NCBI RefSeq assembly: GCF_000219805.1
Contig: NC_015759.1
Coordinates: forward strand, 1-64,000
Reading direction: 5' to 3'
Source: Weissella koreensis KACC 15510
GTDB taxonomy: Bacteria > Bacillota > Bacilli > Lactobacillales > Lactobacillaceae
DNA: 64,000 nt
Shown: one piece after another, positions 3,513-24,014 of the stretch
Layout: every line of letters starts with the position of its first letter
Numbering within the stretch: position 1 is the stretch's first letter
Program-made: the position numbers and the translations under genes
The notes under the pieces: generated by a model
The model's input: the letters and a program-made list of their open reading frames with translations, nothing else
Database searches by the model: none
What the model was told of the DNA's origin: nothing

Positions 3513-4057
3513 TACAAATACCTCATCGTCACTTCAATATGTGGCACTTCATCTGAATCTAATATCGTATATCTTTTCATTGCTTTTGTAATTTGAATAA
3601 ACGAATCATTGAGACCTGTCTGTTTAAAAGCAGGGTGCTCAAACAATGAATCGACTGCACCTTTAACCATGTTATCCAAATCGGATTTATTAGTGGGATA
3701 GCTGCGTATTTCGCCCTCTGGACGCTTTAATACAAAAGTTAAGCCCAATTCCCATCCTTGGAAATCAGAACGTAATTTACCCCTTAAACGTCCATTATCG
3801 TCACGTGGTTGACCGCTCTTAATATCTCGAACAGTCTTATATCCTTCTTGGCTTCCTGATAAGTAAAAAATCATCTCAAACTTAGTCTGGCTCAAGTATT
3901 CCGTTAACCACAACTCAATTCTTTTCCGCCATATTGAGTAATCGTCATTGAAATACCCACCATTCTTACTAGAACGCGCACGAGGTGCGGGCATAGGTTC
4001 TATGGGGATAACAAAGCTATAGCCTTTATTCACTATTTCTGATGATTTTTCGTCCAT
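3512..4057 (-). CDS. rusA: RusA-family Holliday junction resolvase
   Basis: 181 aa. Family knowledge: RusA is a dimeric endonuclease that cuts four-way DNA junctions using three conserved aspartates. Here the N-terminal IPIEPMPAPRARSS (about 17-30) matches the family's opening strand, SDLDN supplies Asp126 and Asp128, and LNDSFIQI supplies Asp151, matching the catalytic D-x-D and later D of the family. An insertion at about 55-115 makes it longer than the roughly 120-aa E. coli protein but similar to phage and plasmid versions. Its start lies 25 nt inside the preceding gene. RusA is normally phage-encoded; no structural phage genes accompany it here. Confidence 0.8.
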   Translation of the reverse strand: MDEKSSEIVNKGYSFVIPIEPMPAPRARSSKNGGYFNDDYSIWRKRIELWLTEYLSQTKFEMIFYLSGSQEGYKTVRDIKSGQPRDDNGRLRGKLRSDFQGWELGLTFVLKRPEGEIRSYPTNKSDLDNMVKGAVDSLFEHPAFKQTGLNDSFIQITKAMKRYTILDSDEVPHIEVTMRYL

Positions 4058-10282: not shown

Positions 10283-11140
10283 TTAAATTAAAAAAGATTC
10301 TAGTATCAAATTAATTTGTGAATCATCAGAGTGTGATTCTGAATTTGAACCTGAGGCTGAAGCCGAATCACTCTTCGAGCTATTATCTGATTCTGATTTC
10401 TCTGAATTAGAATTACTCTCTGAGTTTGAGCCTGATGCACTCTTTGATGTACTTGCTGAATCTGACTCATTTGAATCTGATGTTGAGGCACTCTTTGATG
10501 TACTCTTTGATGCATCATCTGAGTCCGACGCTGAATTTGATTCATTTGAATTTGATTCTGATACACTTACTGAGATACTATCAGATTCACTTGTTGAATT
10601 AGATACTGACTTTGATGCATCTGGATCTTCTGGCTTATTCAACGAAGTTGAACTACTGTCCGATGTTGATGCTGAAGCACTATCTGATCCTTCTGAATTT
10701 GATGTTGAACCCGAAGTTGATGTTGATTCTGAATCACTATTTGAGGCTGAAGTACTATCTGATCCATTCGAATTAGATGCTGACTTTGAGCTTGATGTTG
10801 ATTCTGAATTACTATCTGACGCTGAAGTACTATCTGATCCTTCTGATTCACTCTTTGACTTTGAGCTTGACGTTGATATTGAATCACTCTTTGAGGCACT
10901 TGCTGAATCTGATTCATTTGAATCTGATGTTGAGGCACTCTTTGATGTACTCTTTGAGGCATCATCTGAGGCTGACACTGAATTTGATTCATTTGAATTT
11001 GATTCTGATGCACTTACTGAGATACTATCAGATTCACTTGCTGAATTAGATACTGACTTTGATGCATCTGGATCTTCTGGCTTATTCAACGAAGTTGAAC
11101 TACTGTCCGATGTTGATGCTGAAGCACTACCTGATCAAAA
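10283..11140 (-). pseudogene. Decayed fragment of a serine-rich repeat adhesin
   Basis: The frame encodes almost only Ser/Asp/Glu/Ala/Asn repeats (SASESDSIS, SNSESNSNSEKSES) interrupted twice by NKPEDPDASKS. It has no signal peptide: upstream the frame runs into a stop at about 11138-11140 without an ATG. It has no LPxTG or membrane anchor: it ends in an unrelated QINLILESFLI tail. So both ends of the ancestral adhesin are missing. The repeat type differs from that of the intact SRR protein at 34039-37173 (SDSTSDSxSD), so it is not a simple local copy. Not expected to be exported. Confidence 0.75.
10424..11140 (-). repeat. 447-bp tandem unit in the SRR fragment
   Basis: The block containing NKPEDPDASKS and the following Ser-rich sequence occurs twice, exactly 447 bp (149 codons) apart: for example CTGGATCTTC at 10621 and again at 11068. 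The copies differ by scattered substitutions. Confidence 0.7.
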
Positions 11141-11480: not shown

Positions 11481-12001
11481 TTATATAATCGAAATTAAAA
11501 AACATACTATACTAAGTAATATAAAAACAACCGATAAATGATTTACATAAGTTTTATAATTATTCAAGTCTATCATGGAAAAGTATGAAAATTCCAGATT
11601 ATTATCTAAATGTTTGTTAATATAAGACCTTCTTATGTCATTTTTTGTTAATCGATTTTTTTTAACGTTAACATATCAAAAGTTAATAATAAAAAGGCAA
11701 TTCCTAATAGAAAATTTGATATTGCAAGATTAATACACGACATAAGAAACGTAATGCCAACAAATAAAAATCCCATACCCATATATAAAAACCACTTATT
11801 TAATATAATATACCAATGACTAATTTTTGATTTAAAATAATTATTTTGTCGGTCTAATAATTCTTTTGACAGTCCTTTTATATGTATTTTTTCATCTCCA
11901 AAAATTCTAGCAAATTGTCTTTCTCTGAGGAAAATAATAAACATCGTTATTATCAATATAAACTGTAGAAACAATAATAAAATAAGCACAGTATTCACCA
12001 A
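11481..12001 (-). pseudogene. Frameshifted paralogue of the 21461 membrane protein
   Basis: The open part (12001-11648, 117 codons) matches the first two-thirds of the 172-aa protein at 21461-21979, including the identical start MVNTVLILLLFLQFIL. The match continues in another frame down to 11481 (YINKHLDNNLEFSYF, NNYKTYVNHLS). The frames switch at an A8 run near 11655; one extra A would restore a full-length protein. Predicted four membrane segments. Adjacent to the lysis/effector cassette but on the opposite strand. It is a recent single-base loss or a phase-variable state. Confidence 0.8.
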
Positions 12002-12851: not shown

Positions 12852-12876
12852 GAAAGCACATTAATGTGCTTTTTTA
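12852..12876 (+). terminator. Intrinsic terminator upstream of cassette copy 1
   Basis: AAAGCACAT/ATGTGCTTT stem followed by T6. A similar hairpin lies at the same place before cassette copy 2 (17588-17613), so it belongs to the duplicated unit. Confidence 0.7.
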
Positions 12877-13031
12877 ATTAAATAAATTTATTTCATATTT
12901 ATTTTAACCACACTAATTTAGTCATTACATCATACCAATAAATATTTTTGTCACAAAATGATATTACTAGCAACAATTACTTATATACGAATATTAATGA
13001 CTTATTAAATATATATATGGAGATTGGTGCT

Positions 13032-13418
13032 ATGTGGACAAATGTTGAAAATATTTTAATGCAGAATGAATATCAATTAAATGATTTAACTTATGACGAA
13101 ATATTCACAAAGATTGATAAAAATATAAAGATAAAAGCTAAAAATGCTTCTTATCGTGCTAATAACGTTGGTGTTCATATTTCATACGAAGATTTTTACA
13201 GTTACTTTCTTGAAGCCATTTGGAATGGATTAAATGCGTTCATATCAGATCGAAATCTCATTTTGAGCCACGTTATGACACACAGGTTGAAAATCGCAGA
13301 ATTAACTGTATGGCGTAGAAACCAACATACAGGATCTAATAAAGATAAGAATCGCATAACATATATATCTACACGCAATTTATCTCTTGATTCTATGGAG
13401 TTAGATATCAAATATTAA
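13032..13418 (+). CDS. Sigma-70-like protein, region 2 part
   Basis: 128 aa from ATG 13032, chosen because GGAG lies 9 nt upstream; the frame can extend to a TTG at 12948 without an RBS. Residues 60-110 resemble sigma region 2 (DFYSYFLEAIWNGLNAF, then HRLKIAELTVWRRNQ), like the D-x-x-Q-E-x-x-x-x-LW-A pattern of phage and ECF-type sigma factors. The stop codon TAA is directly followed by the ATG of the next ORF, which supplies a region-4-like domain. In copy 2 the stop is a GAA codon, joining both parts. It is probably the transcriptional driver of the downstream holin-lysozyme-effector genes. Likeness only; no alignment could be run. Confidence 0.55.
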   Translation: MWTNVENILMQNEYQLNDLTYDEIFTKIDKNIKIKAKNASYRANNVGVHISYEDFYSYFLEAIWNGLNAFISDRNLILSHVMTHRLKIAELTVWRRNQHTGSNKDKNRITYISTRNLSLDSMELDIKY

Positions 13419-13634
13419 ATGGATCTATATAATTTTTCAAATTTAAAAATATTAATAGAAGAATTTTCAGAAAAATATCCGGAAGACGGTCTAATAATTA
13501 AAATGCTTTATCACGGATATTCACCAAAATTAATTTCCAAAAATCTCTTCAAATGTTCTCATTACTCAGACAAATATAGAAAAAGAATTAATAGAACTAG
13601 ACATAACTTTGAGACATTTTATGTATCAAAATGA
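13419..13634 (+). CDS. Sigma-70-like protein, region 4 part
   Basis: 71 aa. YPEDGLIIKMLYHGYSPKLI followed by SDKYRKRINRTRHNF fits the helix-turn-helix of sigma region 4 (L-x-x-x-Y-x-x-G-x-S-x-x-x-I, then an R/K-rich recognition helix). It starts at TAAATG, sharing no RBS of its own, so it depends on translation of the preceding ORF. In the second copy (18152-18391) this part is nearly identical and is fused in frame to the end of the first part. Either copy 1 carries a nonsense mutation that splits one sigma factor, or it works as a two-subunit sigma factor, as known for SigO-RsoA in Bacillus. Confidence 0.55.
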   Translation: MDLYNFSNLKILIEEFSEKYPEDGLIIKMLYHGYSPKLISKNLFKCSHYSDKYRKRINRTRHNFETFYVSK

Positions 13635-13664
13635 TTTTGTTTCTATTTTTGAAAGGTGTCTATT

Positions 13665-14027
13665 ATGAATACACTTATCCCATTATTTTTAACCGGTCAG
13701 TCCAAAGAACTACTTTATCTATTCATGTATTTATTACCAATTAGGTTAATCGTCACACTCATTGAACGTAGCCCACCCTACCGTTCTGTTTTAATTAAAT
13801 TTTTTAAATCAGAAGTATATAATTTATGTTTAATTCTAACGTGTGGAATACTGGATCAAGCAGTAATTATTTACGACATTAACATAGCATTTAATTTTGC
13901 AGCGTTAACAACACTTTTAATTATCGTTGATGAAATATCTTCGATACTTGCTGATTCAAAAACAACAGTAAGCAGTAAATTAATCCAAAAATCAATTGAT
14001 TTACTGAAACAATCACTAACAAAGTAA
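13665..14027 (+). CDS. Holin-like membrane protein
   Basis: 120 aa, start at ATG 13665 with GAAAGG 8 nt upstream (an upstream GTG in frame overlaps the RBS). Two or three predicted membrane segments (LLYLFMYLLPIRLIVTLI; YNLCLILTCGILDQAVIIY; FAALTTLLIIVDEISSIL) and a charged C-terminus with KSIDLLKQSLTK fit the small toxin-secretion/phage-lysis holin type. It ends 10 nt before a GH25 lysozyme gene, the usual holin-endolysin order. Expected role: hole formation allowing signal-less lysozyme to reach the wall. Confidence 0.7.
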   Translation: MNTLIPLFLTGQSKELLYLFMYLLPIRLIVTLIERSPPYRSVLIKFFKSEVYNLCLILTCGILDQAVIIYDINIAFNFAALTTLLIIVDEISSILADSKTTVSSKLIQKSIDLLKQSLTK

Positions 14028-14037
14028 GGAGTTAATT

Positions 14038-14790
14038 ATGTTAAAAATAGTTGATATTTCAAGTCATCAATCACCCAACTTCCAAAATGTAGGTGAAGAT
14101 GGCGCTATTATTAAAGCTACAGAAGGAATAGATTATGTTTCACCTGCCTGTAACCCACAATTCACGGCATATAATGACTTGAATAAGCTCCTTGGTCTCT
14201 ACCATTATGCTCAAGGCCTTGATCCCATAGAAGAAGCTGATTGGTTTTTGAATAATATCAAAAACTATTTATATAAAGCTGTTTTAGTCTTAGATTGGGA
14301 AAGCGGAAGTAATCAAGCTTGGGGTGATTCAAACTGGCCAGAGAAATTTGTTACACATATTCACGATAGAACGGGAATTTGGCCACTAATTTATATTCAA
14401 GCTTCCGCAATTGAACAAGTTAAAAATTTATCAGAAAAATGTGGGCTTTGGATAGCTGGTTATCCAGATTTGAGGGACTCCTGGTTAACACCATCGTTCA
14501 TCTACTCTACTGATCCGTGGCCATATTTTACAGGTTGGCAATACTCTACTTCTAATGGTCTATTAGATCGATCTATTTTCAATTTATCAGATAACAATTG
14601 GCATAGTCTAGCTAATCCTAAAAATGATAATTCAATAAATGAAGATAATAACGTTTATATCGTACAAAATGGAGACACATTAATTAACATCGCGGAAAAA
14701 TTAAGCATTCCTGATTGGCACATATTAATTGAACTAAATAATATCGACAATCCAGACATGATTACAGTTGGGCAAACACTCAAGTATTAA
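14038..14790 (+). CDS. GH25 lysozyme (endolysin) with LysM
   Basis: 250 aa. Residues 1-190 are a GH25 muramidase: start MLKIVDISSHQ, LDWESG near residue 86 (catalytic Asp/Glu), GYPDL and WQYST late in the domain. Residues 205-250 form one LysM peptidoglycan-binding motif (YIVQNGDTLINIAEKL to VGQTLKY). No signal peptide, so release needs the holin encoded upstream. RBS AAGGAG. Copy 2 retains only its first about 22 codons fused to the LysM end. Phage-endolysin character is clear; whether it lyses host, kin or rivals is not. Confidence 0.9.
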   Translation: MLKIVDISSHQSPNFQNVGEDGAIIKATEGIDYVSPACNPQFTAYNDLNKLLGLYHYAQGLDPIEEADWFLNNIKNYLYKAVLVLDWESGSNQAWGDSNWPEKFVTHIHDRTGIWPLIYIQASAIEQVKNLSEKCGLWIAGYPDLRDSWLTPSFIYSTDPWPYFTGWQYSTSNGLLDRSIFNLSDNNWHSLANPKNDNSINEDNNVYIVQNGDTLINIAEKLSIPDWHILIELNNIDNPDMITVGQTLKY

Positions 14791-14811
14791 CAATAAGAAT
14801 GGAGGCCAATT

Positions 14812-16926
14812 ATGGCAGACGAAATGGTTTTAGAAACACAAAAATGGTTAAACAAAACTTATGGCAATGTCTCTGGGTTTGGATCAGTTCCTGAGAATGG
14901 TAAAACCGGTTGGGATACAATTTATGGACTTATTAGAGCAACTCAGGTTGAGTTAGGTATTACTGGACTGGTTAACAATTGGGGGCCAACAAGTGCCGCA
15001 TATTGGGACACCCAATTCAAAGATAAGATGAAAGTTGGTTATAAAGGTAACGTCGTCAAAATTTTACAAGGTGCTTTCTGGTGTAAAGGGATCAACCCTC
15101 AAGATTTCACTGGTAATTTTTCAACGCGAACTCAAGAAGCAATTTATTCAATGAAAAGTGATGCTGGAATTGCAGACACATCATACGTTGTTGATTCAGC
15201 ATTTATGGGCGCCCTACTTACAATGAATCAATATGTATTAGTTGCAGGTGGAGATAAAGTCATTCGTAAAATGCAACAAGAATTAAATCATGATTATCAA
15301 TCGTATACTGGAATTTTACCTACAGATGGAATTTATCAACGAGATACCAATACTGCCTTAATCTATGCATTACAAGCAAGTGAAGGTATGGGAACTGATC
15401 AAGCTAATGGATTTTATGGTCCTGGAACAATCGCTAATACACCCTCGATTAGTCAAGGAGCTACTGGTGCATTTGTAAAGATCATCCAATGGGGGCTTTA
15501 CGTTAACGGTTTCAATAGCTCCGCCTCATTTAGTGGAGTATTTGATAATAACGTTTCCTCTGAAATTATTGCCTTTCGAAAATTCATGGTATTACCTAAT
15601 ACTAATTCATCTACAGCTGATTTAACTGTATTTAAGGGGTTATTAACAAGTAACGGAGACACCGATCGCTCCGCTTTAGCTTTTGATACAGCAACACAAC
15701 TATCATCAAGTCAAATTGATAGTCTTTGGAATTTGGGATATCGATATGCTGGACGATATCTCACTGGTTCCGTAGGTACCGGTGAGAATGAACGAGATAA
15801 AAATTTAACAAATACTGAAATTTCTCATCTACAAAAGAAAGGATTTTCAATTTTCCCTATTTATGAAGATGGCGGATACACTGTAAAATATTTCAATGAC
15901 GCACAAGGTATTGAGGATGCCGTTCTAGCTGCAAGAGCAGCAAAGCAACTAGGATTACCTCAAGGAACCACTATCTACTTCGCTGCTGATGTTGACTTAT
16001 TAGATACTGAAATTGTTTCTAATTTAATTCCCTATATCCGAAATGCAAAAAGCTACCTTGCTAGCTTTGGTTACACTGCAGGATTGTATGGCACTAGAAA
16101 TGCATGTTTACAAGCAGCTCAAGCCACTGGAATGAAGGACTTCTTCTTATGTGACATGTCTTCGGGCTGGAGTGGAAACTTAGGTTTCAAAATGCCTGAA
16201 AGTTGGACATTCGATCAATTCTTTGAGGAGACTGAAACAGGAGTAGGTGTTGATAAAGTTGCATATTCAGGTCGAGATGCTGGTTTCAATTCTATTGATA
16301 AGAATCAAATTGCAGTAAATGAAGCCATTAAGAAACTTGTACCTTGGTTTTCATTAAGTCTTGAGGGTAAACATACTATTTATGATATTGGTTGGATGAA
16401 ATTAGTAACTAAAGCCACCAATTCAGCTGGTTTTGGAGGTGATTATGATTCAACGGCAGTTGTAGATATTAAAAATGGTAAGATTAGTAACGCGGATTTA
16501 AGTTCTGCTTTTAAAAAATTTGGGTTAAATAATGATACAGGTCTCGATATAGCTGTCACTAGTATTGAAAAAGCTGCTTTAACTAAAACAGTTAAAAGTG
16601 GATCTCTAGAAATGAAATATAAAGTTTCCAATGGTGACTACACCATTGAATTAGATTATCAAGTAAATGAAATTGAAGAAGGTTATCTTGATGACACATT
16701 AACTATTGGTCTGGAAATTACATTACACTGGTCAAATTTTCTAGATGCTTTAGGAGCACTTAAGGAGGCAGCTGAAGCAATAGCAAGTGTTGTTGTATTA
16801 GTATCACTTGCAGTAATTGCAGTGGCTGCATTTCCACTAGATGCTGTAATTACCCCCGCTGCTGGTATACTAGAAGCAATAACTCTTTCGATAAGACTAA
16901 TTGTTCAAACCGCGTTTAATAAATAA
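14812..16926 (+). CDS. Modular wall protein: PG-binding, DUF1906, hydrophobic tail
   Basis: 704 aa without signal peptide. Residues 1-135 and 140-285 look like two peptidoglycan-binding-type helical regions (GYKGNVVKILQGAFWCKGI; GATGAFVKIIQWGLYVNGF). Residues 287-500 are a DUF1906 glycoside-hydrolase-like TIM barrel (AFDTATQLSSSQIDSLWNLG, IYFAADVD, GLYGTRNAC). Residues 510-704 are an unrecognised module ending in a long hydrophobic stretch (655-690), homologous in pattern to the end of the 801-aa protein (IKNGK, DDTLTI/TESLTI). It follows the lysozyme gene by 21 nt with RBS GGAGG. Domain order suggests a wall-targeting effector with a membrane-active end; killing activity is not shown. Confidence 0.7.
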   Translation: MADEMVLETQKWLNKTYGNVSGFGSVPENGKTGWDTIYGLIRATQVELGITGLVNNWGPTSAAYWDTQFKDKMKVGYKGNVVKILQGAFWCKGINPQDFTGNFSTRTQEAIYSMKSDAGIADTSYVVDSAFMGALLTMNQYVLVAGGDKVIRKMQQELNHDYQSYTGILPTDGIYQRDTNTALIYALQASEGMGTDQANGFYGPGTIANTPSISQGATGAFVKIIQWGLYVNGFNSSASFSGVFDNNVSSEIIAFRKFMVLPNTNSSTADLTVFKGLLTSNGDTDRSALAFDTATQLSSSQIDSLWNLGYRYAGRYLTGSVGTGENERDKNLTNTEISHLQKKGFSIFPIYEDGGYTVKYFNDAQGIEDAVLAARAAKQLGLPQGTTIYFAADVDLLDTEIVSNLIPYIRNAKSYLASFGYTAGLYGTRNACLQAAQATGMKDFFLCDMSSGWSGNLGFKMPESWTFDQFFEETETGVGVDKVAYSGRDAGFNSIDKNQIAVNEAIKKLVPWFSLSLEGKHTIYDIGWMKLVTKATNSAGFGGDYDSTAVVDIKNGKISNADLSSAFKKFGLNNDTGLDIAVTSIEKAALTKTVKSGSLEMKYKVSNGDYTIELDYQVNEIEEGYLDDTLTIGLEITLHWSNFLDALGALKEAAEAIASVVVLVSLAVIAVAAFPLDAVITPAAGILEAITLSIRLIVQTAFNK

Positions 16927-16928
16927 AT

Positions 16929-16964
16929 AAAAAAAGAGACTAATTCTAGTTTAGTCTCTTTTTT
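16929..16964. terminator. Bidirectional terminator
   Basis: AAAAAGAGACTAA (16931-16943) pairs with TTAGTCTCTTTTT (16951-16963). It serves the 704-aa gene on plus and touches the stop of the convergent 161-aa gene on minus. Confidence 0.85.
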
Positions 16965-17448
16965 ATATCATGGGAAACAACATAGGCAATACCATCAACA
17001 AAATACCAGATCTAAAAAAAACAATAAGTGATTTGTTATAAATTAATTCGTCTAAAATATATAAATTCAGTATGTTTTCTGGATCAGATTTTAAATAATT
17101 ACTTATAAAAATATGATCTTCATGCAAACTCCATGCGTTATATAGAGATACAATACCAACACTTTGAAAGAATAAATATATTTTAGGAAATCCCCATTTT
17201 ATTTCAATGAATACAGCGTATCCTAAAGAAATAAACATGGTAATTACCAATATAACCGCTTGGAATTTTATTTTCCAATTTTTTGATTCATCAACATATT
17301 TTCTTACATTTTCCTCAGAGTATCTTAAATAAATTTTTCTCTCATCAGTTTTGTATTTCTTAGTTAAATTCTGATTTAGCATTACCACATCTCGAACAAC
17401 AAAGACTAACACTACAATTAAGATAATATAAAAACTTATTTTTAACAT
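16963..17448 (-). CDS. Multi-TM protein, possible immunity partner
   Basis: 161 aa; ATG 17448 chosen because AGAGG precedes it; five more in-frame codons exist upstream. Predicted membrane segments at about 5-22, 68-88, 92-115 and 142-160. Its architecture (one N-terminal TM, a charged loop, two central TMs, one C-terminal TM) matches the 172-aa protein at 21461, although sequence similarity is slight. It is convergent with the 704-aa modular protein. Small membrane proteins beside membrane-active effectors are often immunity proteins, and that is the inference here. No family recognised. Confidence 0.5.
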   Translation of the reverse strand: MLKISFYIILIVVLVFVVRDVVMLNQNLTKKYKTDERKIYLRYSEENVRKYVDESKNWKIKFQAVILVITMFISLGYAVFIEIKWGFPKIYLFFQSVGIVSLYNAWSLHEDHIFISNYLKSDPENILNLYILDELIYNKSLIVFFRSGILLMVLPMLFPMI

Positions 17449-17587
17449 ACTGACCTCTTCCATTTCATTATTAAAAGTCCAATTATACTATACTTTGTAA
17501 AATGGTCACAAAATATTGTTTTAAAAAACAAAGAATATGTCTCTTAATTATCAATATCATTTTCCCTAATGTTTATTTTATTTAATG

Positions 17588-17613
17588 AAAAGCACAATTT
17601 TTGTGCTTTTTTT
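17588..17613 (+). terminator. Intrinsic terminator upstream of cassette copy 2
   Basis: AAAAGCACAA/TTGTGCTTTT stem plus T-run; positional equivalent of 12852-12876 in copy 1. Confidence 0.7.
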
Positions 17614-17787
17614 ATTAGATCAATACATTTCAAGGTTATTTTTATCTAATTAATTTAATTCTTAAATAGTAATGAATAGATATTCCGTAATTCCGTTAAA
17701 TACTTTTGTCACAATCTGATATTCCTAGCAACAATTACTTATATACAAATATTAATGACTTATTAAATATATATGGAGATTGGAGAT

Positions 17788-18391
17788 ATGTGGACGGATG
17801 CTGAAAATATTTTAATACAGAATGACTATCAATTAAATGATTTAACTTATGACTAAATATTCACAAAAATTGATAAAAATATAAAGATAAAATCTAGAAA
17901 TGCTTCTTATCGTGCAATAACGTTGGTGTTCATATTTCATACGAATATTTTTACAGTTACTTTCTTGAAGCCATTTGGAATGGATTAAATGCGTTCATAT
18001 CAGATCGAAATCTAATTTTGAGCCACGTTATGACACACAGGTTGAAAATTGCAGAATTAACAGTATGGCGTAGAAATCAACATACAGGATCTAATAAAGA
18101 TAAGAGTCGCATAACATATATATATCTACACGCAATTTATCTCTGGATTCTATGGAATTAGATATCAAATATGAAATGAATCTATATAATTTTTCAAATT
18201 TAAAAATATTAATAGAAGAATTTTCAGAAAAATATCCAGAAGACGGTCTAATCATTAAAATGCTTTATCACGGATATTCACCAAAATTAATTTCAAAAAA
18301 TTTATTCACTTGTTCTGATTACTCAGACAAATATAGAAAAAGAATTAATAGAACTAGACATAATTTTGAGACATTTTATGTATCAAAATGA
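17788..18391 (+). pseudogene. Broken second copy of the sigma-like gene
   Basis: Near-identical DNA to 13032-13634. Lesions: GAA to TAA nonsense at 17854-17856 (TATGACTAAATA), a 1-nt deletion near 17916 (CGTGCAATAACG) and a 2-nt insertion near 18120. The last 80 codons (18152-18391) remain open and run from the end of the region-2 part straight into the region-4 part (KYEMNLYNF) because the stop seen in copy 1 is GAA here. The upstream RBS (GGAGATTGGAGAT before ATG) is preserved. Confidence 0.8.
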
Positions 18392-18421
18392 ATTTTCTTT
18401 TATTTTTGAAAGGCTACTAAT

Positions 18422-18781
18422 ATGAATACTCTTATCCCCTTATTTTTAACCAGTCAGTCCAAAGAATTACTTTATCTATTCATATATTTATTACCAATTA
18501 GGTTAATTATCACACTAATCGAGCGTAGCCCACCCACCCGTTCTGTTCTAATTAATTTTTTAAATTAGAAGTATAATCTATGCTTAATTATAACGTGTGG
18601 AATACTGGATCAAGCAGTAATTATTTACGACATTAACATCGCATTTAATTTTGCAGCGTTAACAACACTTTTAATTATCGTTGATGAAATATCTTCGATA
18701 ATTTCTGATTCAAAAACAACAGTAAGCAGTAATTTAATCCAAAAATCAATTGAATTAATGAAACGATCACTAACAAAGTAA
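18422..18781 (+). pseudogene. Broken second copy of the holin-like gene
   Basis: Matches 13665-14027 over its length (starts MNTLIPLFLTSQSKELLYLF). Deletions around 18556-18585 shift the frame and create TTAAATTAG. The C-terminal DNA after 18590 is still nearly identical to copy 1. Confidence 0.8.
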
Positions 18782-18791
18782 GGAATTAGTT

Positions 18792-18973
18792 ATGTTAAAA
18801 ATAGTTGATATTTCAAGCCATCAATCACCCAATTTTTCAAATGTAGGTGAAAATGGCTCAACTATCGCAGAAAAATTTAAAAATTCCTGATTGGCAAATG
18901 TTAATTGAATTAAATAATATTGAGATATTGACAATTCAAACATATTAAAGTTGGGAAAACACTCAAGTACTAA
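18792..18973 (+). pseudogene. Remnant of the GH25 lysozyme gene, internal deletion
   Basis: The first about 22 codons (MLKIVDISSHQSPNF) match 14038 onward, then the sequence jumps to the LysM end (TIAEKF, then IPDWQ in another frame). About 580 bp present in copy 1 (roughly 14104-14682) are missing. Confidence 0.85.
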
Positions 18974-18996
18974 CAATTAGAATGGAGAAATAGATC

Positions 18997-21402
18997 ATGG
19001 AAGATACTTTATTAACATTTCTTAAGAGTCAGATGGATACCGCTAAATTTGAATATCAAATTAATTTTGATAATCAATATGACAGTAATTACGAATCACA
19101 AATTATATCAGGTGAAATTAAAGATCTACCTGATAATGATGAGAAAATTGTACCCAAATATATTAATGTCAACAAATATTACACACCAGAAAGTACCGAA
19201 TACATTTCTGGAACTTGGTCTAATTTAAATAATATTAATAACTACAGAGTTGAAATTTATATATTAACAGATAAATATTACTTAGTTGATTCTTGTGAAT
19301 TAAAACCAGATGGTAGTTGGATTTCAACAAAAGAAATTAAAGAAGGATTTAAAGTTATTAAGTTAGTTGATAACACCCAAACAGGTGATGACAATAGGTT
19401 TATTGAATATCCATATTCACAATTTAGTAATTTTAAATTTAGATTATATAGTTTAACGGATACTGAGTATTTAACAGATGAAGTACCTATATTTGATGTA
19501 GGGAATGGAAAATATATATTTTATACAAATAAAGCAAGACAAGGTTTAAAAGTTGGAAAAGTATTAAATCGAATTTGGCGTGCAAATGCTTATCAGTATG
19601 ATATTGTTGGTATCTCAGGAGCTGTAACTAATATTGGAAATGGACGTTTACCTAGTTCTTATTTAATTCCTACTAATGATCCGTCATATGATAAAGATGG
19701 ATCATCAGCTAAGGGAAAATATGGCTATATGCTGAATTCTCGTTCTTGGATATACGATGTCGGGTTAGTTTTATTAGTGTTCACCACTAGTGGAGATTAT
19801 GATCTATGTAAAGAGATTATGGACCGTATCAAATATGAACAAAATCCAAACGGGTCTTTTAACTTCAGCTACGATAATTATATTGGTCCTCTTTTCGAAG
19901 GTTACGTTCGCACTGGATCAGTTGGCTGGTTAGTATGGGGAATGACATATTATACAATAACTACTGGTGATAAAGCTTATTTAAGAACCATTAAAACTGC
20001 AGGGGAATGGTTATTATCTAAAATTATTACAGATGAATCAGATGATCGTTATGGATTGCTAACTGGTGGATATGGTAGTTATGATGATAATTATGAATAT
20101 CAGCCTACAGAAATTGAATGGTGTTCAACAGAACATCAAGTTTCCAGTTTACAAGCATTAAATGGATTATTTAAGTTAACAGGTGACGTAAGATATAAAA
20201 ACGCTGCTAATAATGTTCACTATCGCTTACTTAAGAGATTATACGATAAAAAAAGTTATCGATTCTATCAAGGTATGACAAAGAATGGAGTTGATAATGC
20301 CTGGGCGTTAGATTGTGTAACGTGGGCTGGATTATCAACATTAACTGATAGTAATTTTAATAAATTTGCTAGAAATATTATTAACGTTACACAAAGTGAA
20401 TATGGAGTAAATGATACTATATTAACTAGTGATGTTGAAAACAGATTTAATACTACGTATTCAAGCGACGAAAATTTTAGCGGATTTAAACCATACAGTG
20501 ATCGAGACAATGGTTATTCTGGCTCGCCTAGTATCGTATGGAGCGAAGGAACTTTGGGATTTGCGTTATTGTGTATTAGAAACAATGAATCAGGTCTTGC
20601 AAATAAGTATTTAAGTGAGATGAAAAAATTACAAAATGTCGCAAATACAAGTGGTGGTCTTTTATATTCAACGGCAACTTATGCTGAATTACCATGGGAA
20701 TTTCACGTATGGGAATGTGTAACATCTACTTCATGGCTATATTTACTAAATAATAATCATGATGTACTCTTTACTAAAAATGATTACCCTACTGTTGATA
20801 TTGATAAAGTTACACCAGAAGAAGCTTTAAAAGATATTTGGCCTAACTGTCAATATGAACTAGAAAGTGAATTTACGATTTTTGATAATTTAGGAATAGA
20901 AATTACTGGTAAAATAACTGATTCATATAAAAATTCTGATGATAATAGTATATTTACCATTAAAAATGGTAAATTTGATGAAGCTAGTTTAAAAGAATAT
21001 TTAAATGGCTTAGGATTAGATAATAGTTCTGTAGTAGATATTGTTTTTGATAAATTGGGTAAGGCCGAATTCACAAGTGAAATTGAATATGGTCAATTTT
21101 CTATAAAAGTAACTATTGGTGCAGATAGTATTGAAGCAATTGAAATGGCATGGACAGTGTTTGAAACAAAATCAGGAATTTTAACAGAATCCCTCACAAT
21201 TTCTTTTGAAGGAAAAATTAACTTTCCAGATGTTCCTGGCGCAGCTGAAATTGAAAAAATTGTAGAAGATATACGTCTAGGATTAATATGTGTTGGTTTA
21301 GTTGTAGTTGTAATTTCAGCTGCCGTTGCAAGCGGAGTTTTCGATGCAATTGCTGCTACAATAATGGCATTCATTGCGGAGATTGGTATGGTTCTTGCTT
21401 AA
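18997..21402 (+). CDS. Modular protein: six-hairpin glycosidase-like domain, hydrophobic tail
   Basis: 801 aa, no signal peptide. Residues 55-165 are beta-rich, perhaps Ig-like (EYISGTWSNLNNINNYRVEIY). Residues 190-595 resemble an alpha/alpha6-barrel glycosidase: repeated helices with WIYDVGLVLLVF, GWLVWGMTYY, EHQVSSLQALNGLFKLTGD, VWSEGTLGFALLCI and ECVTSTSWLYLL. Residues 615-801 are the module shared with the 704-aa protein (FTIKNGK; GILTESLTISFEG; then Val/Ala-rich membrane stretch 760-800). It stands where copy 1 has its DUF1906 protein, after wrecked sigma, holin and lysozyme genes, yet has no lesion itself. RBS GGAG 9 nt upstream. Substrate unknown. Confidence 0.7.
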   Translation: MEDTLLTFLKSQMDTAKFEYQINFDNQYDSNYESQIISGEIKDLPDNDEKIVPKYINVNKYYTPESTEYISGTWSNLNNINNYRVEIYILTDKYYLVDSCELKPDGSWISTKEIKEGFKVIKLVDNTQTGDDNRFIEYPYSQFSNFKFRLYSLTDTEYLTDEVPIFDVGNGKYIFYTNKARQGLKVGKVLNRIWRANAYQYDIVGISGAVTNIGNGRLPSSYLIPTNDPSYDKDGSSAKGKYGYMLNSRSWIYDVGLVLLVFTTSGDYDLCKEIMDRIKYEQNPNGSFNFSYDNYIGPLFEGYVRTGSVGWLVWGMTYYTITTGDKAYLRTIKTAGEWLLSKIITDESDDRYGLLTGGYGSYDDNYEYQPTEIEWCSTEHQVSSLQALNGLFKLTGDVRYKNAANNVHYRLLKRLYDKKSYRFYQGMTKNGVDNAWALDCVTWAGLSTLTDSNFNKFARNIINVTQSEYGVNDTILTSDVENRFNTTYSSDENFSGFKPYSDRDNGYSGSPSIVWSEGTLGFALLCIRNNESGLANKYLSEMKKLQNVANTSGGLLYSTATYAELPWEFHVWECVTSTSWLYLLNNNHDVLFTKNDYPTVDIDKVTPEEALKDIWPNCQYELESEFTIFDNLGIEITGKITDSYKNSDDNSIFTIKNGKFDEASLKEYLNGLGLDNSSVVDIVFDKLGKAEFTSEIEYGQFSIKVTIGADSIEAIEMAWTVFETKSGILTESLTISFEGKINFPDVPGAAEIEKIVEDIRLGLICVGLVVVVISAAVASGVFDAIAATIMAFIAEIGMVLA

Positions 21403-21460
21403 TAAAGTCTATTAAGTTTTAGCATTTTATAGTAAAATTAAAATAAATTATTTAGATTAG

Positions 21461-21979
21461 TTGGTGAATACTGTGCTTATTTTATTATTGTTTCTACAAT
21501 TTATATTATTAATGATATTGATTATTATTTTCTTTAGAGGAATAAAATTCATTAAAATATTTGTAGATGAAAAACGGCTTCCAAAAGAATTATTAGAACG
21601 ACGAAAGACCTATATTAAACCCAAGATTAATAATAGGCAGCTTATATTAAGTAAGTGGTCTTTATATATGGGAATTTTCTTTGTTGGCATTGCGATTCTT
21701 ATGTCATATATTAATATTACAATATCAACTTTTATAATAGGAATTGCCTTGTTATTATTGACTTGTTATCTTTTAACGATTAAAAAAATACAATTTAAAA
21801 TAAATGATATAAAAAGATCTTATATTAATAAACATTCAGATAATGATCTAGAATTTTCATATCTTACCTTGGTAGATTTTAATAATTATAAAACTTATAT
21901 AAATCATTTATCTTTTATTTTTATATTACTCAGTATAGTATTTTTTTTAATTTCGCTTATATTATATATGGTAGTTTAA
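21461..21979 (+). CDS. Four-TM protein, possible immunity partner
   Basis: 172 aa. Predicted membrane segments near 4-24, 68-86, 88-108 and 148-170, charged loops between. It follows the 801-aa effector by 58 nt on the same strand. No RBS is visible before the TTG/GTG start region (TTGGTGAATACTGTG), but a -10-like TATAGT lies about 30 nt upstream; the same start context is conserved in the frameshifted paralogue at 11481-12001, so the start is probably right and perhaps leaderless. Family not recognised. Immunity to the neighbouring effector is inferred from position, size and topology. Confidence 0.6.
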   Translation: MVNTVLILLLFLQFILLMILIIIFFRGIKFIKIFVDEKRLPKELLERRKTYIKPKINNRQLILSKWSLYMGIFFVGIAILMSYINITISTFIIGIALLLLTCYLLTIKKIQFKINDIKRSYINKHSDNDLEFSYLTLVDFNNYKTYINHLSFIFILLSIVFFLISLILYMVV

Positions 21980-23430: not shown

Positions 23431-23772
23431 TCATCTCAATGTTGCTTGTAAAATCATTTGTATCTCATTAAACTTGTCGGTTGGCAACATCTCTACAGTC
23501 TTCCAACTTCGGCTAGTATAGTCAAACATTCTTAATTGTTCCGCATACACAGTTCCATCAGTTTCTGTTCTTTCATCTAACTTTATGTGCATTGGATATT
23601 GCTTACCATTAAAACTACCGTGCGATATGGGAACTGCCCAGATAAATGGGGACGTCATAGCTAAAATATGATTACTTACTACTACAGCTGGTCGTTTCTT
23701 CTGGATTTCTTTTCCCTTGCTAGGATCAAAATCAATGTATATGATTGAACCCGTTTTTGGCTTGTCTACCAT
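23431..23772 (-). CDS. mazF: MazF endoribonuclease toxin
   Basis: 113 aa. A PemK/MazF-like SH3-type barrel: GSIIYIDFDPSKGKEIQKKRPAVVVS opening (shown by GSIIYIDFDP and KKRPAVVVS), conserved Arg and later Thr in the catalytic groove, and VYAEQLRMFD in the C-terminal half. Family knowledge: cleaves single-stranded mRNA at short motifs to arrest growth. The ATG lies 7 nt inside the mazE stop region, so translation is coupled. All expected motifs are intact, so the module appears functional. Confidence 0.9.
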   Translation of the reverse strand: MVDKPKTGSIIYIDFDPSKGKEIQKKRPAVVVSNHILAMTSPFIWAVPISHGSFNGKQYPMHIKLDERTETDGTVYAEQLRMFDYTSRSWKTVEMLPTDKFNEIQMILQATLR

Positions 23773-24014
23773 ATTTCTTGACCCACCTTACTATCTGCAT
23801 CATTTCCCCACAAATTTTCACCTGGATACTCATTACTTACATCCCAATCAGAAAATAATTCTTCCATACTTATTTGAGATTTTTTTTCTGGGGTTAGACG
23901 TATAATACCTTTTTCGTCCATATCTACGTCAAACTTTTGACCAGCCTCGACATTTAATTTCTTAGGTAACGTAATCGTGACTGCATTACCTTGAATTCTA
24001 GCTTTTACTGCCAT
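23766..24014 (-). CDS. mazE: MazE-type antitoxin (AbrB/SpoVT fold)
   Basis: 82 aa. Residues 1-45 form the swapped-hairpin DNA-binding domain (AVKARIQGNAVTITLPKKL, then FDVDMDEKGIIRLTP). The C-terminal 35 residues are acidic and aromatic (MEELFSDWDVSNEYPGE), the part that normally occupies the MazF active site. RBS GGAGGAG. The gene lies directly downstream of a long palindrome overlapping its promoter, consistent with autorepression by MazE and MazEF. Confidence 0.9.
   Translation of the reverse strand: MAVKARIQGNAVTITLPKKLNVEAGQKFDVDMDEKGIIRLTPEKKSQISMEELFSDWDVSNEYPGENLWGNDADSKVGQEIW

What the first reader, a model, noticed from the sequence alone, without database searches (positions are those of the whole stretch)
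12852..21979. Duplicated sigma-holin-lysozyme-effector cassette with exchanged effector
Seen: two blocks share an upstream terminator, a sigma-like gene, a holin-like gene, a GH25 lysozyme and a large protein with a hydrophobic C-terminus. The large proteins have different N-terminal enzyme-type domains (peptidoglycan-binding plus DUF1906 versus a six-hairpin glycosidase-like domain). No capsid, tail or integrase genes are near. Inferred: a phage-derived, self-contained release system for signal-less effectors, with modular swapping as in polymorphic toxins. I know of no described system with this exact order.
Basis: partly seen in the sequence, partly recalled or inferred. Interest (0 to 1): 0.88.

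Follow-up and report, generated by a model that had tools for sequence, protein, structure and literature searches.

The report
Duplicated bacteriocin locus with swapped modules
A lactic acid bacterium carries one fuller and one decayed copy of a known kind of bacterium-killing gene cluster, and its two large proteins are built from interchangeable front and back parts, each beside a small membrane protein that probably protects the producer.

Summary
The repeat is real, but it is not two equal cassettes and not an undescribed kind of system. Block 1 (12853-17463) resembles the Bac41 bacteriolysin locus: a BacL2-like regulator cut by an in-frame stop, a holin-like gene, a GH25-LysM lysin, a 704-aa BacA-type protein (51.5% to the pBEE99 protein over residues 3-558) and a convergent membrane protein. 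In block 2 the regulator is frameshifted, the holin is interrupted and GH25 is mostly deleted; the 801-aa effector and a 172-aa membrane protein are open.

The novelty left is modularity. The 801-aa effector joins a glycosidase-like front, also seen in a phage tail-position protein, to a C-module found elsewhere behind the BacA front. Of 75 non-redundant relatives, 58 have a downstream membrane-type gene within 400 nt (upstream 12). With front similarity held, C-module similarity goes with membrane-gene homology; a rank test did not show this. In viral contigs L171/L183 one front at one site has different C-modules and membrane genes.

Best reading: a polymorphic Bac41/YbfG bacteriolysin family. 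Killing, immunity and holin release are inferred; no structure could be run.

The parts
11484..12001 (-). Frameshifted relic of a second copy of the 172-aa membrane (candidate immunity) gene; the open part is the 117-aa ORF 11648-12001
   Evidence: 117-aa ORF matches the 172-aa protein (phmmer 4e-32 in a 26-sequence set); the remaining C-terminal part lies in another frame at 11484-11642
12853..12872 (.). Hairpin with T-run (terminator-like) at the head of block 1
   Evidence: sequence read
12948..13634 (+). BacL2-like regulator (sigma-like) cut by an in-frame stop between its two conserved parts: ORFs 12948-13418 (156 aa, TTG start) and 13419-13634 (71 aa)
   Evidence: NF041508 BacL2 E 5.6e-27 (profile 1-121) and 3.1e-10 (143-201); '1 TAA' inside the match
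13656..14027 (+). Holin-like protein, 123 aa, 3 hydrophobic segments
   Evidence: No family hit of its own; 28.8% identity, E 3.6e-11, to the gene next to BacA in the Latilactobacillus fragifolii genome; profile comparison with three proteins that match PF05105 gives 63%, P 6.9e-5
14038..14790 (+). GH25 muramidase-type lysin with C-terminal LysM, 250 aa
   Evidence: PF01183 2.7e-27, PF01476 3.7e-9; endolysin PHROG 4e-48
14812..16926 (+). Effector 1, BacA-type, 704 aa: PG-binding + Rv2525c/DUF1906 front module (about 1-492) and C-module with a hydrophobic end (about 493-704)
   Evidence: 51.5% to the pBEE99 protein over 3-558; PHROG_15213 1.1e-137 over 2-509
16963..17463 (-). 166-aa membrane protein, convergent with effector 1: candidate immunity protein
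   Evidence: 3 hydrophobic segments, 37 nt from effector 1; weak relation to membrane genes beside effectors of a related C-type (hmmsearch 3.2e-5 in a 26-sequence set; hhalign 39%, P 3e-4)
17590..17610 (.). Copy of the hairpin with T-run at the head of block 2
   Evidence: sequence read; homologous segment
17706..18391 (+). Decayed copy of the BacL2-like gene (frameshifts)
18413..18781 (+). Decayed copy of the holin-like gene (two close indels, stop inside)
18792..18987 (+). Remnant of the GH25-LysM gene: its two ends, the middle deleted
18997..21402 (+). Effector 2, 801 aa: glycosidase-like front module (about 1-600) and a C-module of the type that follows BacA fronts elsewhere (about 600-801)
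   Evidence: tail-fibre PHROGs over 300-595; front 68/56/56% in three other Lactobacillaceae genomes, C-module 43-45% in four others; sharp switch near residue 600
21461..21979 (+). 172-aa membrane protein downstream of effector 2: candidate immunity protein
   Evidence: 4 hydrophobic segments, 59 nt from effector 2; hhalign 95%, P 3.9e-8 to membrane genes beside effectors with this C-type

Best explanation
Block 1 is a Bac41-related bacteriolysin locus. Shown: it encodes relatives of BacL2 and of the BacA-type protein, a holin-like protein, a GH25-LysM lysin and a membrane protein next to the effector. Inferred mechanism: the BacL2-like factor turns the unit on; the holin lets the lysin, and perhaps the signal-less effector, out of some producer cells; the front module of the effector binds or trims the wall of a target cell; the C-module, ending in hydrophobic segments, damages the target membrane; the membrane protein next door blocks the matching C-module in the producer. 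Block 2 is a decayed duplicate of which only effector 2 and its membrane protein remain open. Effector 2 shows that the two ends of these proteins are exchangeable: its front is a glycosidase-like module, its C-module is of the BacA-linked type, and the candidate immunity gene goes with the C-module. The regulator is disrupted in both blocks, so production may be off, or in block 1 may depend on the two regulator halves being made as separate proteins; whether effector 2 is expressed is unknown.
For: Family: BacL2 hits, homology of effector 1 to the pBEE99 protein, pBEE99 order amidohydrolase-SH3 ORF-bacL2-holin-175 aa-726 aa-180 aa membrane gene (the record names only bacL2 and the holin family, and the labels BacL1, BacA and BacI are mine, from position and recall). 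Same part set elsewhere: Latilactobacillus fragifolii has GH25, a BacL2 in two ORFs, a holin-like gene, a BacA-type gene and a convergent membrane gene; Enterococcus mundtii has a LysM protein, holin, BacL2, BacA-type gene and a convergent membrane gene. A BacL2-like ORF lies in the fetched stretch of 8 of the 80 named loci (two of the 8 are near-identical, and distances run up to about 5 kb). Neighbour: 58 of 75 non-redundant effectors have a downstream ORF within 400 nt with at least 2 hydrophobic segments, against 12 of 75 upstream and 169 of 756 background ORFs. Coupling of C-module and membrane gene: with Bacillus left out (46 effectors, 1035 pairs, 22 with homologous neighbours) the C coefficient was reached in 0 of 500 permutations and the N coefficient in 276 of 500. 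Exchange at one site: viral contigs L171 and L183, flanks 97-99%, front 96%, C-module 26%, membrane gene 18% over only 40 aligned residues. Cross-check on this window: the 172-aa protein resembles membrane genes beside BacA-front effectors of the same C-type (95%) and not those beside same-front effectors with another C-type (0.1%). Short C-module ORFs in 5 loci (6 ORFs; L064 and L143 are the same genome). Hydrophobic segment in the last 90 aa in 64 of 75, and none in the first 45 aa of the front module in 75 of 75.
Against: No killing, immunity, secretion or lysis was tested. The rank-based partial Mantel test did not favour the C-module: I~C given N 0.083 (20 of 2000 permutations reached it), I~N given C 0.138 (1 of 2000). 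With Bacillus included the logistic coefficients were N 0.43 and C 1.44, without a permutation test, and in the 0.55-0.65 front band most homologous neighbours were at low C similarity (4 of 23 against 13 of 117). C-modules are not unrelated toxins: distant ones still align (85%), so this is fast divergence of one fold as much as toxin swapping, and 11 of 75 lack the hydrophobic end. The holin assignment rests on weak profile similarity. The 166-aa protein's link to the immunity group is weak (39%). BacL2 is disrupted here, and only 2 of 378 Lactobacillaceae genomes had it, both disrupted, so the unit may be dying. No BacL1-type match was found in this genome. Short C-module ORFs may be broken effectors rather than spare cassettes.
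Confidence: 0.66

Rival explanations
1. A degraded prophage lysis region: the holin and GH25 are leftovers of a phage lysis cassette and the large proteins are phage tail-associated lysins or fibres.
For: GH25 matches an endolysin PHROG at 4e-48 and effector 2 matches tail-fibre PHROGs; a 50%-identical front module is in tail position, followed by holin and endolysin, in viral contig L156; 38 viral-contig loci encode BacA-type proteins.
Against: No head, tail or integrase hit in 10 flanking ORFs; BacL2 near BacA-type genes in Enterococcus, Sporolactobacillus and other genomes; 546 plasmid against 2 annotated phage records; the C-modules and membrane neighbours are not explained by tail function. 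In L156 the C-terminal part of the protein is different.
Confidence: 0.12
2. Autolysin or cell-wall remodelling operon of the producer itself: the effectors act on the producer's own wall and the membrane proteins anchor or regulate them.
For: Domains are wall-active; Bacillus carries chromosomal YbfG-type homologues.
Against: Patchy occurrence (BacA-type in 5 of 28 genomes of the genus, own included, at E 0.001), plasmid carriage, strong variability of C-module plus neighbour at one site, and reported killing by Bac41 (passages).
Confidence: 0.12
3. Only a dying remnant of a Bac41-type unit, with the effectors kept by chance. This overlaps with the best explanation, which leaves present activity open, so the two odds do not add up to one.
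For: Regulator broken in block 1; regulator, holin and lysin broken in block 2; immunity relic.
Against: The 704-aa and 801-aa effectors, the block 1 holin-like gene and lysin, and two membrane proteins are all open, while the front of the same duplicate has collected seven indels, so the effector-membrane pairs seem to be retained.
Confidence: 0.3

Closest known systems
Bacteriocin 41 (Bac41) of Enterococcus faecalis, class III bacteriolysin: BacL1, BacL2, BacA, BacI (the last name recalled)
   Same: BacL2-like regulator, holin-like gene, BacA-type protein and a membrane gene at its 3' side in one locus. Literature passages: BacL1 and BacA act together, and subtypes differ in a region linked to specific immunity.
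   Different: No BacL1-type match: a GH25-LysM lysin sits between holin and effector, and none was found elsewhere in the genome. The membrane gene is convergent. Regulator disrupted. Second effector with a wholly different front module.
Bcn5/UviA/UviB bacteriocins of Clostridium perfringens and C. algidicarnis
   Same: Sigma factor, holin, endolysin and a signal-less bacteriocin with wall-related domains, several with a hydrophobic C-terminus (PMC9527704, passages).
   Different: Effector and regulator families are taken to differ; no sequence comparison was made here.
Bacillus subtilis YbfG and Pfam Ybfg_C (PF21015)
   Same: Same front module family (45-47% in the Bacillus loci) and a named C-terminal domain; the C-modules behind the glycosidase-like front in L137 and L138 match it weakly, below its cut-off (5.8e-4, 0.013).
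   Different: No significant Pfam match for the window's own C-modules. No function for YbfG was seen in the 13 papers listed (search listing only).
Polymorphic toxin systems (Zhang et al. 2012, PMC3482391)
   Same: Conserved front, variable C-terminus, adjacent immunity-like gene, separate C-module ORFs, exchange at one site. The start of the paper's abstract and three passages were seen; the list of features is partly recalled.
   Different: Release by a holin-lysin module (inferred); C-modules are one diverging fold rather than unrelated enzymes. The terms DUF1906 and holin do not occur in the part of that paper held (first 300,000 of 357,715 characters).

Membership tests
Bac41-type bacteriolysin | BacL2 regulator gene | tested here: inconclusive
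   Clear homology (E 5.6e-27 plus 3.1e-10) but below the curated cut-off of 200 bits and interrupted by a stop
Bac41-type bacteriolysin | BacA effector (PG-binding + Rv2525c/DUF1906 front, variable C-module) | tested here: met
   51.5% over residues 3-558 to the 726-aa protein of the bacL2 locus on pBEE99; domains. That this protein is BacA is my label, from position and recalled length
Bac41-type bacteriolysin | BacL1 endopeptidase with SH3 repeats | tested here: not met
   No match in the genome at E 0.001 with the pBEE99 505-aa protein; GH25-LysM present instead. So it is a Bac41-related variant, not Bac41 itself
Bac41-type bacteriolysin | BacI-type immunity gene next to bacA | tested here: inconclusive
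   A multi-segment membrane gene is in place but shows no sequence relation to the pBEE99 180-aa protein; protection not tested
Bac41-type bacteriolysin | Killing of related strains by two released components | not testable with these tools
   needs bench work
Polymorphic toxin system | One front module with exchangeable C-modules and matching neighbour genes at one site | tested here: met
   L171/L183 and the L161/L170 relatives in viral contigs; logistic test without Bacillus. The rank-based test did not favour C over N
Polymorphic toxin system | Orphan C-module or immunity cassettes | tested here: inconclusive
   6 short ORFs in 5 loci (L064, L143, L145, L141 twice, L157), L064 and L143 being the same genome; the 291-aa L141 ORF still has part of a front module, and others may be broken effectors
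Polymorphic toxin system | C-module toxic and neighbour protective | not testable with these tools
   needs bench work
Prophage lysis module | Head, tail and integration genes around it | tested here: not met
   none among 10 flanking ORFs; not every ORF of the 64-kb window was scanned

The most novel reading that the evidence does not exclude
BacA/YbfG-type proteins are a widespread polymorphic killing system of Gram-positive bacteria, not mere co-factors of BacL1: swappable fronts (endolysin-like or tail-glycosidase-like, taken from phages) carry a fast-diverging membrane-active C-module, each C-module with its own membrane immunity protein, released by holin-lysin units, some of them under a BacL2-type sigma-like factor. 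Effector 2 would be a naturally made chimera between two of these delivery types.
Probability: 0.45. Interest if true: 0.75.

Novelty: new variant of a known kind. Interest (0 to 1): 0.6.

Why it matters
In the passage read here, BacA is the co-factor in whose presence BacL1 cuts the wall of E. faecalis. The locus and its relatives point to a direct, testable role: the C-module of BacA-type proteins as the killing part, paired with a membrane immunity protein, and the front as an interchangeable wall-targeting part. The relatives reach Lactobacillaceae, Enterococcus, Bacillus, Listeria, Clostridia and plasmids, so a function for this module would explain many genes now listed only as glycoside hydrolase domain proteins, and would give food lactic acid bacteria a class of large bacteriolysins.

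Tried and rejected
Rejected: two intact cassettes (block 2 front genes broken); ordinary prophage lysis region (and linkage); anti-phage defence (PADLOC: one hit at 0.0055 on effector 2, family of unknown function, not taken as evidence); programmed read-through of the regulator (interruptions lie at different places in different genomes, which fits decay better).

Indirect hints only: TIGR01577 oligosaccharide amylase at 6.7e-6, far below its cut-off, on the L156 relative and GH127 at 0.032 on L136. PDB sequence search with the glycosidase-like front: 0 matches; with a piece of L156, 4 matches at E 0.06-0.6 to PPR proteins, taken as chance. For the BacA front one chain, 1sfs, E 8.8e-5. Two Bac41 papers looked up by id are not held; what I say of Bac41 beyond the passages is recalled. 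Bac41 together with Weissella gave 0 papers; a search for BacL1/BacA with Lactobacillus gave 3 listings. A Weissella bacteriocin review was searched by four terms and gave no bacteriolysin passage.

Counts and dropped rows: one search started from 102 full-front effectors in 101 of 114 loci; 84 remained at 95% identity; 9 of 1360-2343 aa were set aside, leaving 75. Searches used 53 BacA-front effectors with a downstream ORF of 100-320 aa and at least 2 hydrophobic segments (1378 pairs, 55 with homologous neighbours; the five bands shown cover 1350). The final model leaves out Bacillus loci, 7 of the 53. Hydrophobic segments were counted by a simple 19-residue hydropathy window (15 residues for the N-terminal check), not by a trained predictor. 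The related-loci run kept the best 80 of 404. Small-set E-values are for 26 sequences.

Full report
What is there. The reported repeat is real: 1099 of 1180 aligned bases are identical between 12919-14105 and 17677-18859, both copies headed by the same hairpin and T-run. Homology is found again just before the effector start codons (14761-14804 against 18944-18987) and then gives way to two different effectors.

Block 1. The sigma-like gene is BacL2-like: its two open pieces match the two parts of NCBIfam BacL2, and an in-frame TAA followed by ATG separates them between the two conserved regions. Then come a 123-aa holin-like gene, a GH25-LysM lysin, and a 704-aa BacA-type protein. A 166-aa membrane protein gene faces the effector from the other strand.

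Block 2. Seven small indels separate the front of block 2 from block 1, three in the regulator and two in the holin. The regulator is frameshifted, the holin copy has a stop inside, and the lysin is reduced to its ends. The 801-aa effector and the 172-aa membrane protein are open. A frameshifted relic of the 172-aa gene lies upstream of block 1 at 11484-12001.

Which family. On pBEE99 the order is an amidohydrolase (taken as BacL1), an SH3 ORF, bacL2, a holin, a 175-aa ORF, the 726-aa protein (taken as BacA) and a 180-aa membrane gene (labels in brackets are mine, by position and recall). The window has a related set in which a GH25-LysM lysin stands in for BacL1, of which no match was found in this genome. 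Latilactobacillus fragifolii has the same kinds of parts as the window in another arrangement, with BacL2 in two ORFs. BacL2 is rare: 8 of 395 genomes of the order (the G065 match is short and may be chance) and, with a broader profile, 2 of 378 genomes of the family, both disrupted. In the 395-genome sample the coding frame is also interrupted in G295 and G371, and G244 has a stop near its end. BacA-type proteins are far commoner: a BacL2-like ORF was found in the fetched stretch of 8 of 80 named loci.

Modularity. The front of effector 2 is 68, 56 and 56% identical to fronts in three other Lactobacillaceae genomes whose C-modules differ. Its C-module is 43-45% identical to C-modules in four other genomes, all of one genus; two of these have a full BacA front (L139, L142) and two only its end in the open frame (L140, L141). 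Identity along the protein falls from 80 to 14% against L136, and rises from 19 to 54% against L139, at residue 600. One viral contig carries the glycosidase-like front (50%) in a protein that follows the tape measure and a minor tail gene and precedes holin and endolysin, so this front probably came from a phage tail enzyme (inference). In a draw of 378 genomes of the phylum, 3 besides the own genome matched this front, each over about 150-200 residues only.

Neighbour genes. Of 75 non-redundant effectors, 58 have a downstream ORF within 400 nt with at least 2 hydrophobic segments, against 12 upstream and 169 of 756 background ORFs. For 53 BacA-front effectors with such a neighbour I asked whether homology between neighbours tracks the C-module once front similarity is held. 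High against low C similarity, homologous pairs: front 0.30-0.45, 0 of 0 against 3 of 810; 0.45-0.55, 1 of 6 against 6 of 344; 0.55-0.65, 4 of 23 against 13 of 117; 0.65-0.80, 10 of 16 against 0 of 13; above 0.80, 18 of 18 against 0 of 3. Without 7 Bacillus loci: 0 of 0 against 3 of 612; 1 of 5 against 6 of 252; 4 of 9 against 1 of 100; 4 of 10 against 0 of 13; 3 of 3 against 0 of 3; C coefficient 1.90 reached in 0 of 500 permutations, N coefficient -0.06 in 276 of 500. A rank-based partial Mantel test gave no advantage to the C-module; I take it to be dominated by unrelated pairs, but it is a result against. At one site in viral contigs the flanks (97-99%) and front (96%) are the same while C-module (26%) and neighbour (18%) are not (L171, L183). 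Six C-module ORFs of 83-291 aa were seen in five loci (L064 and L143 being the same genome), five of them without a front and one (L141, 291 aa) with only the end of one. In this window the 172-aa protein resembles neighbours of effectors with the same C-type (95%) and not neighbours of effectors with the same front (0.1%).

Mechanism. The passages read say that BacL1 and BacA act together on E. faecalis, BacL1 cutting peptidoglycan when BacA is present, that Bac41 subtypes differ in a region linked to specific immunity, and that the Bcn5 bacteriocins, found with sigma factor, holin and endolysin, may perforate membranes with a hydrophobic C-terminus. By analogy I propose: regulated expression, holin-lysin release, wall targeting by the front, membrane damage by the C-module, and protection by the neighbour membrane protein. 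Only the parts list, the homologies and the linkage are shown; every functional step is inferred.

Verdict. What remains new, as far as the searches here go, is the two-way module exchange, the coupling of the C-module to a membrane neighbour across a large family, and an effector with a front related to a phage tail-position enzyme.

Noticed in passing
window 23431-24014 (-): PemK/MazF-type toxin with an upstream 82-aa partner, 1.5 kb from block 2; a PemK/PrlF pair also sits just upstream of the BacA-type gene on Pediococcus plasmid pPECL-3. The link may be chance.
   Followed up: no
window 10283-11089 (-): Serine-rich SDS/SAS repeat ORF (268 aa) near the relic; looks like part of a serine-rich surface protein.
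   Followed up: no
window 3515-4057 (-): 181-aa ORF matching a RusA-like Holliday junction resolvase PHROG (5.9e-13).
   Followed up: no
L001, L002, L056-L060, L066: A nearly constant BacA-type protein (776-777 aa where whole, 61-62% to the window's front) with a C-module without hydrophobic end and, where the contig reaches, a 196-215-aa membrane gene with five or six segments recurs on small plasmids and contigs of Lactiplantibacillus, Pediococcus, Liquorilactobacillus and others; no BacL2 in these stretches.
   Followed up: partly
L025:9338-11706: BacL2-like gene of a genome of family f3 (same order) next to an M23 peptidase and a lysozyme-like ORF instead of BacA: BacL2 may drive more than one kind of lysin locus.
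   Followed up: partly
L109, L116, L121-L123, L125, L129-L131: In Clostridia and Lachnospiraceae records the BacA front occurs inside proteins of 1360-2343 aa.
   Followed up: no
L028, L027, L031: BacL2 is interrupted in several other genomes at different places, as if the activator is lost repeatedly.
   Followed up: partly
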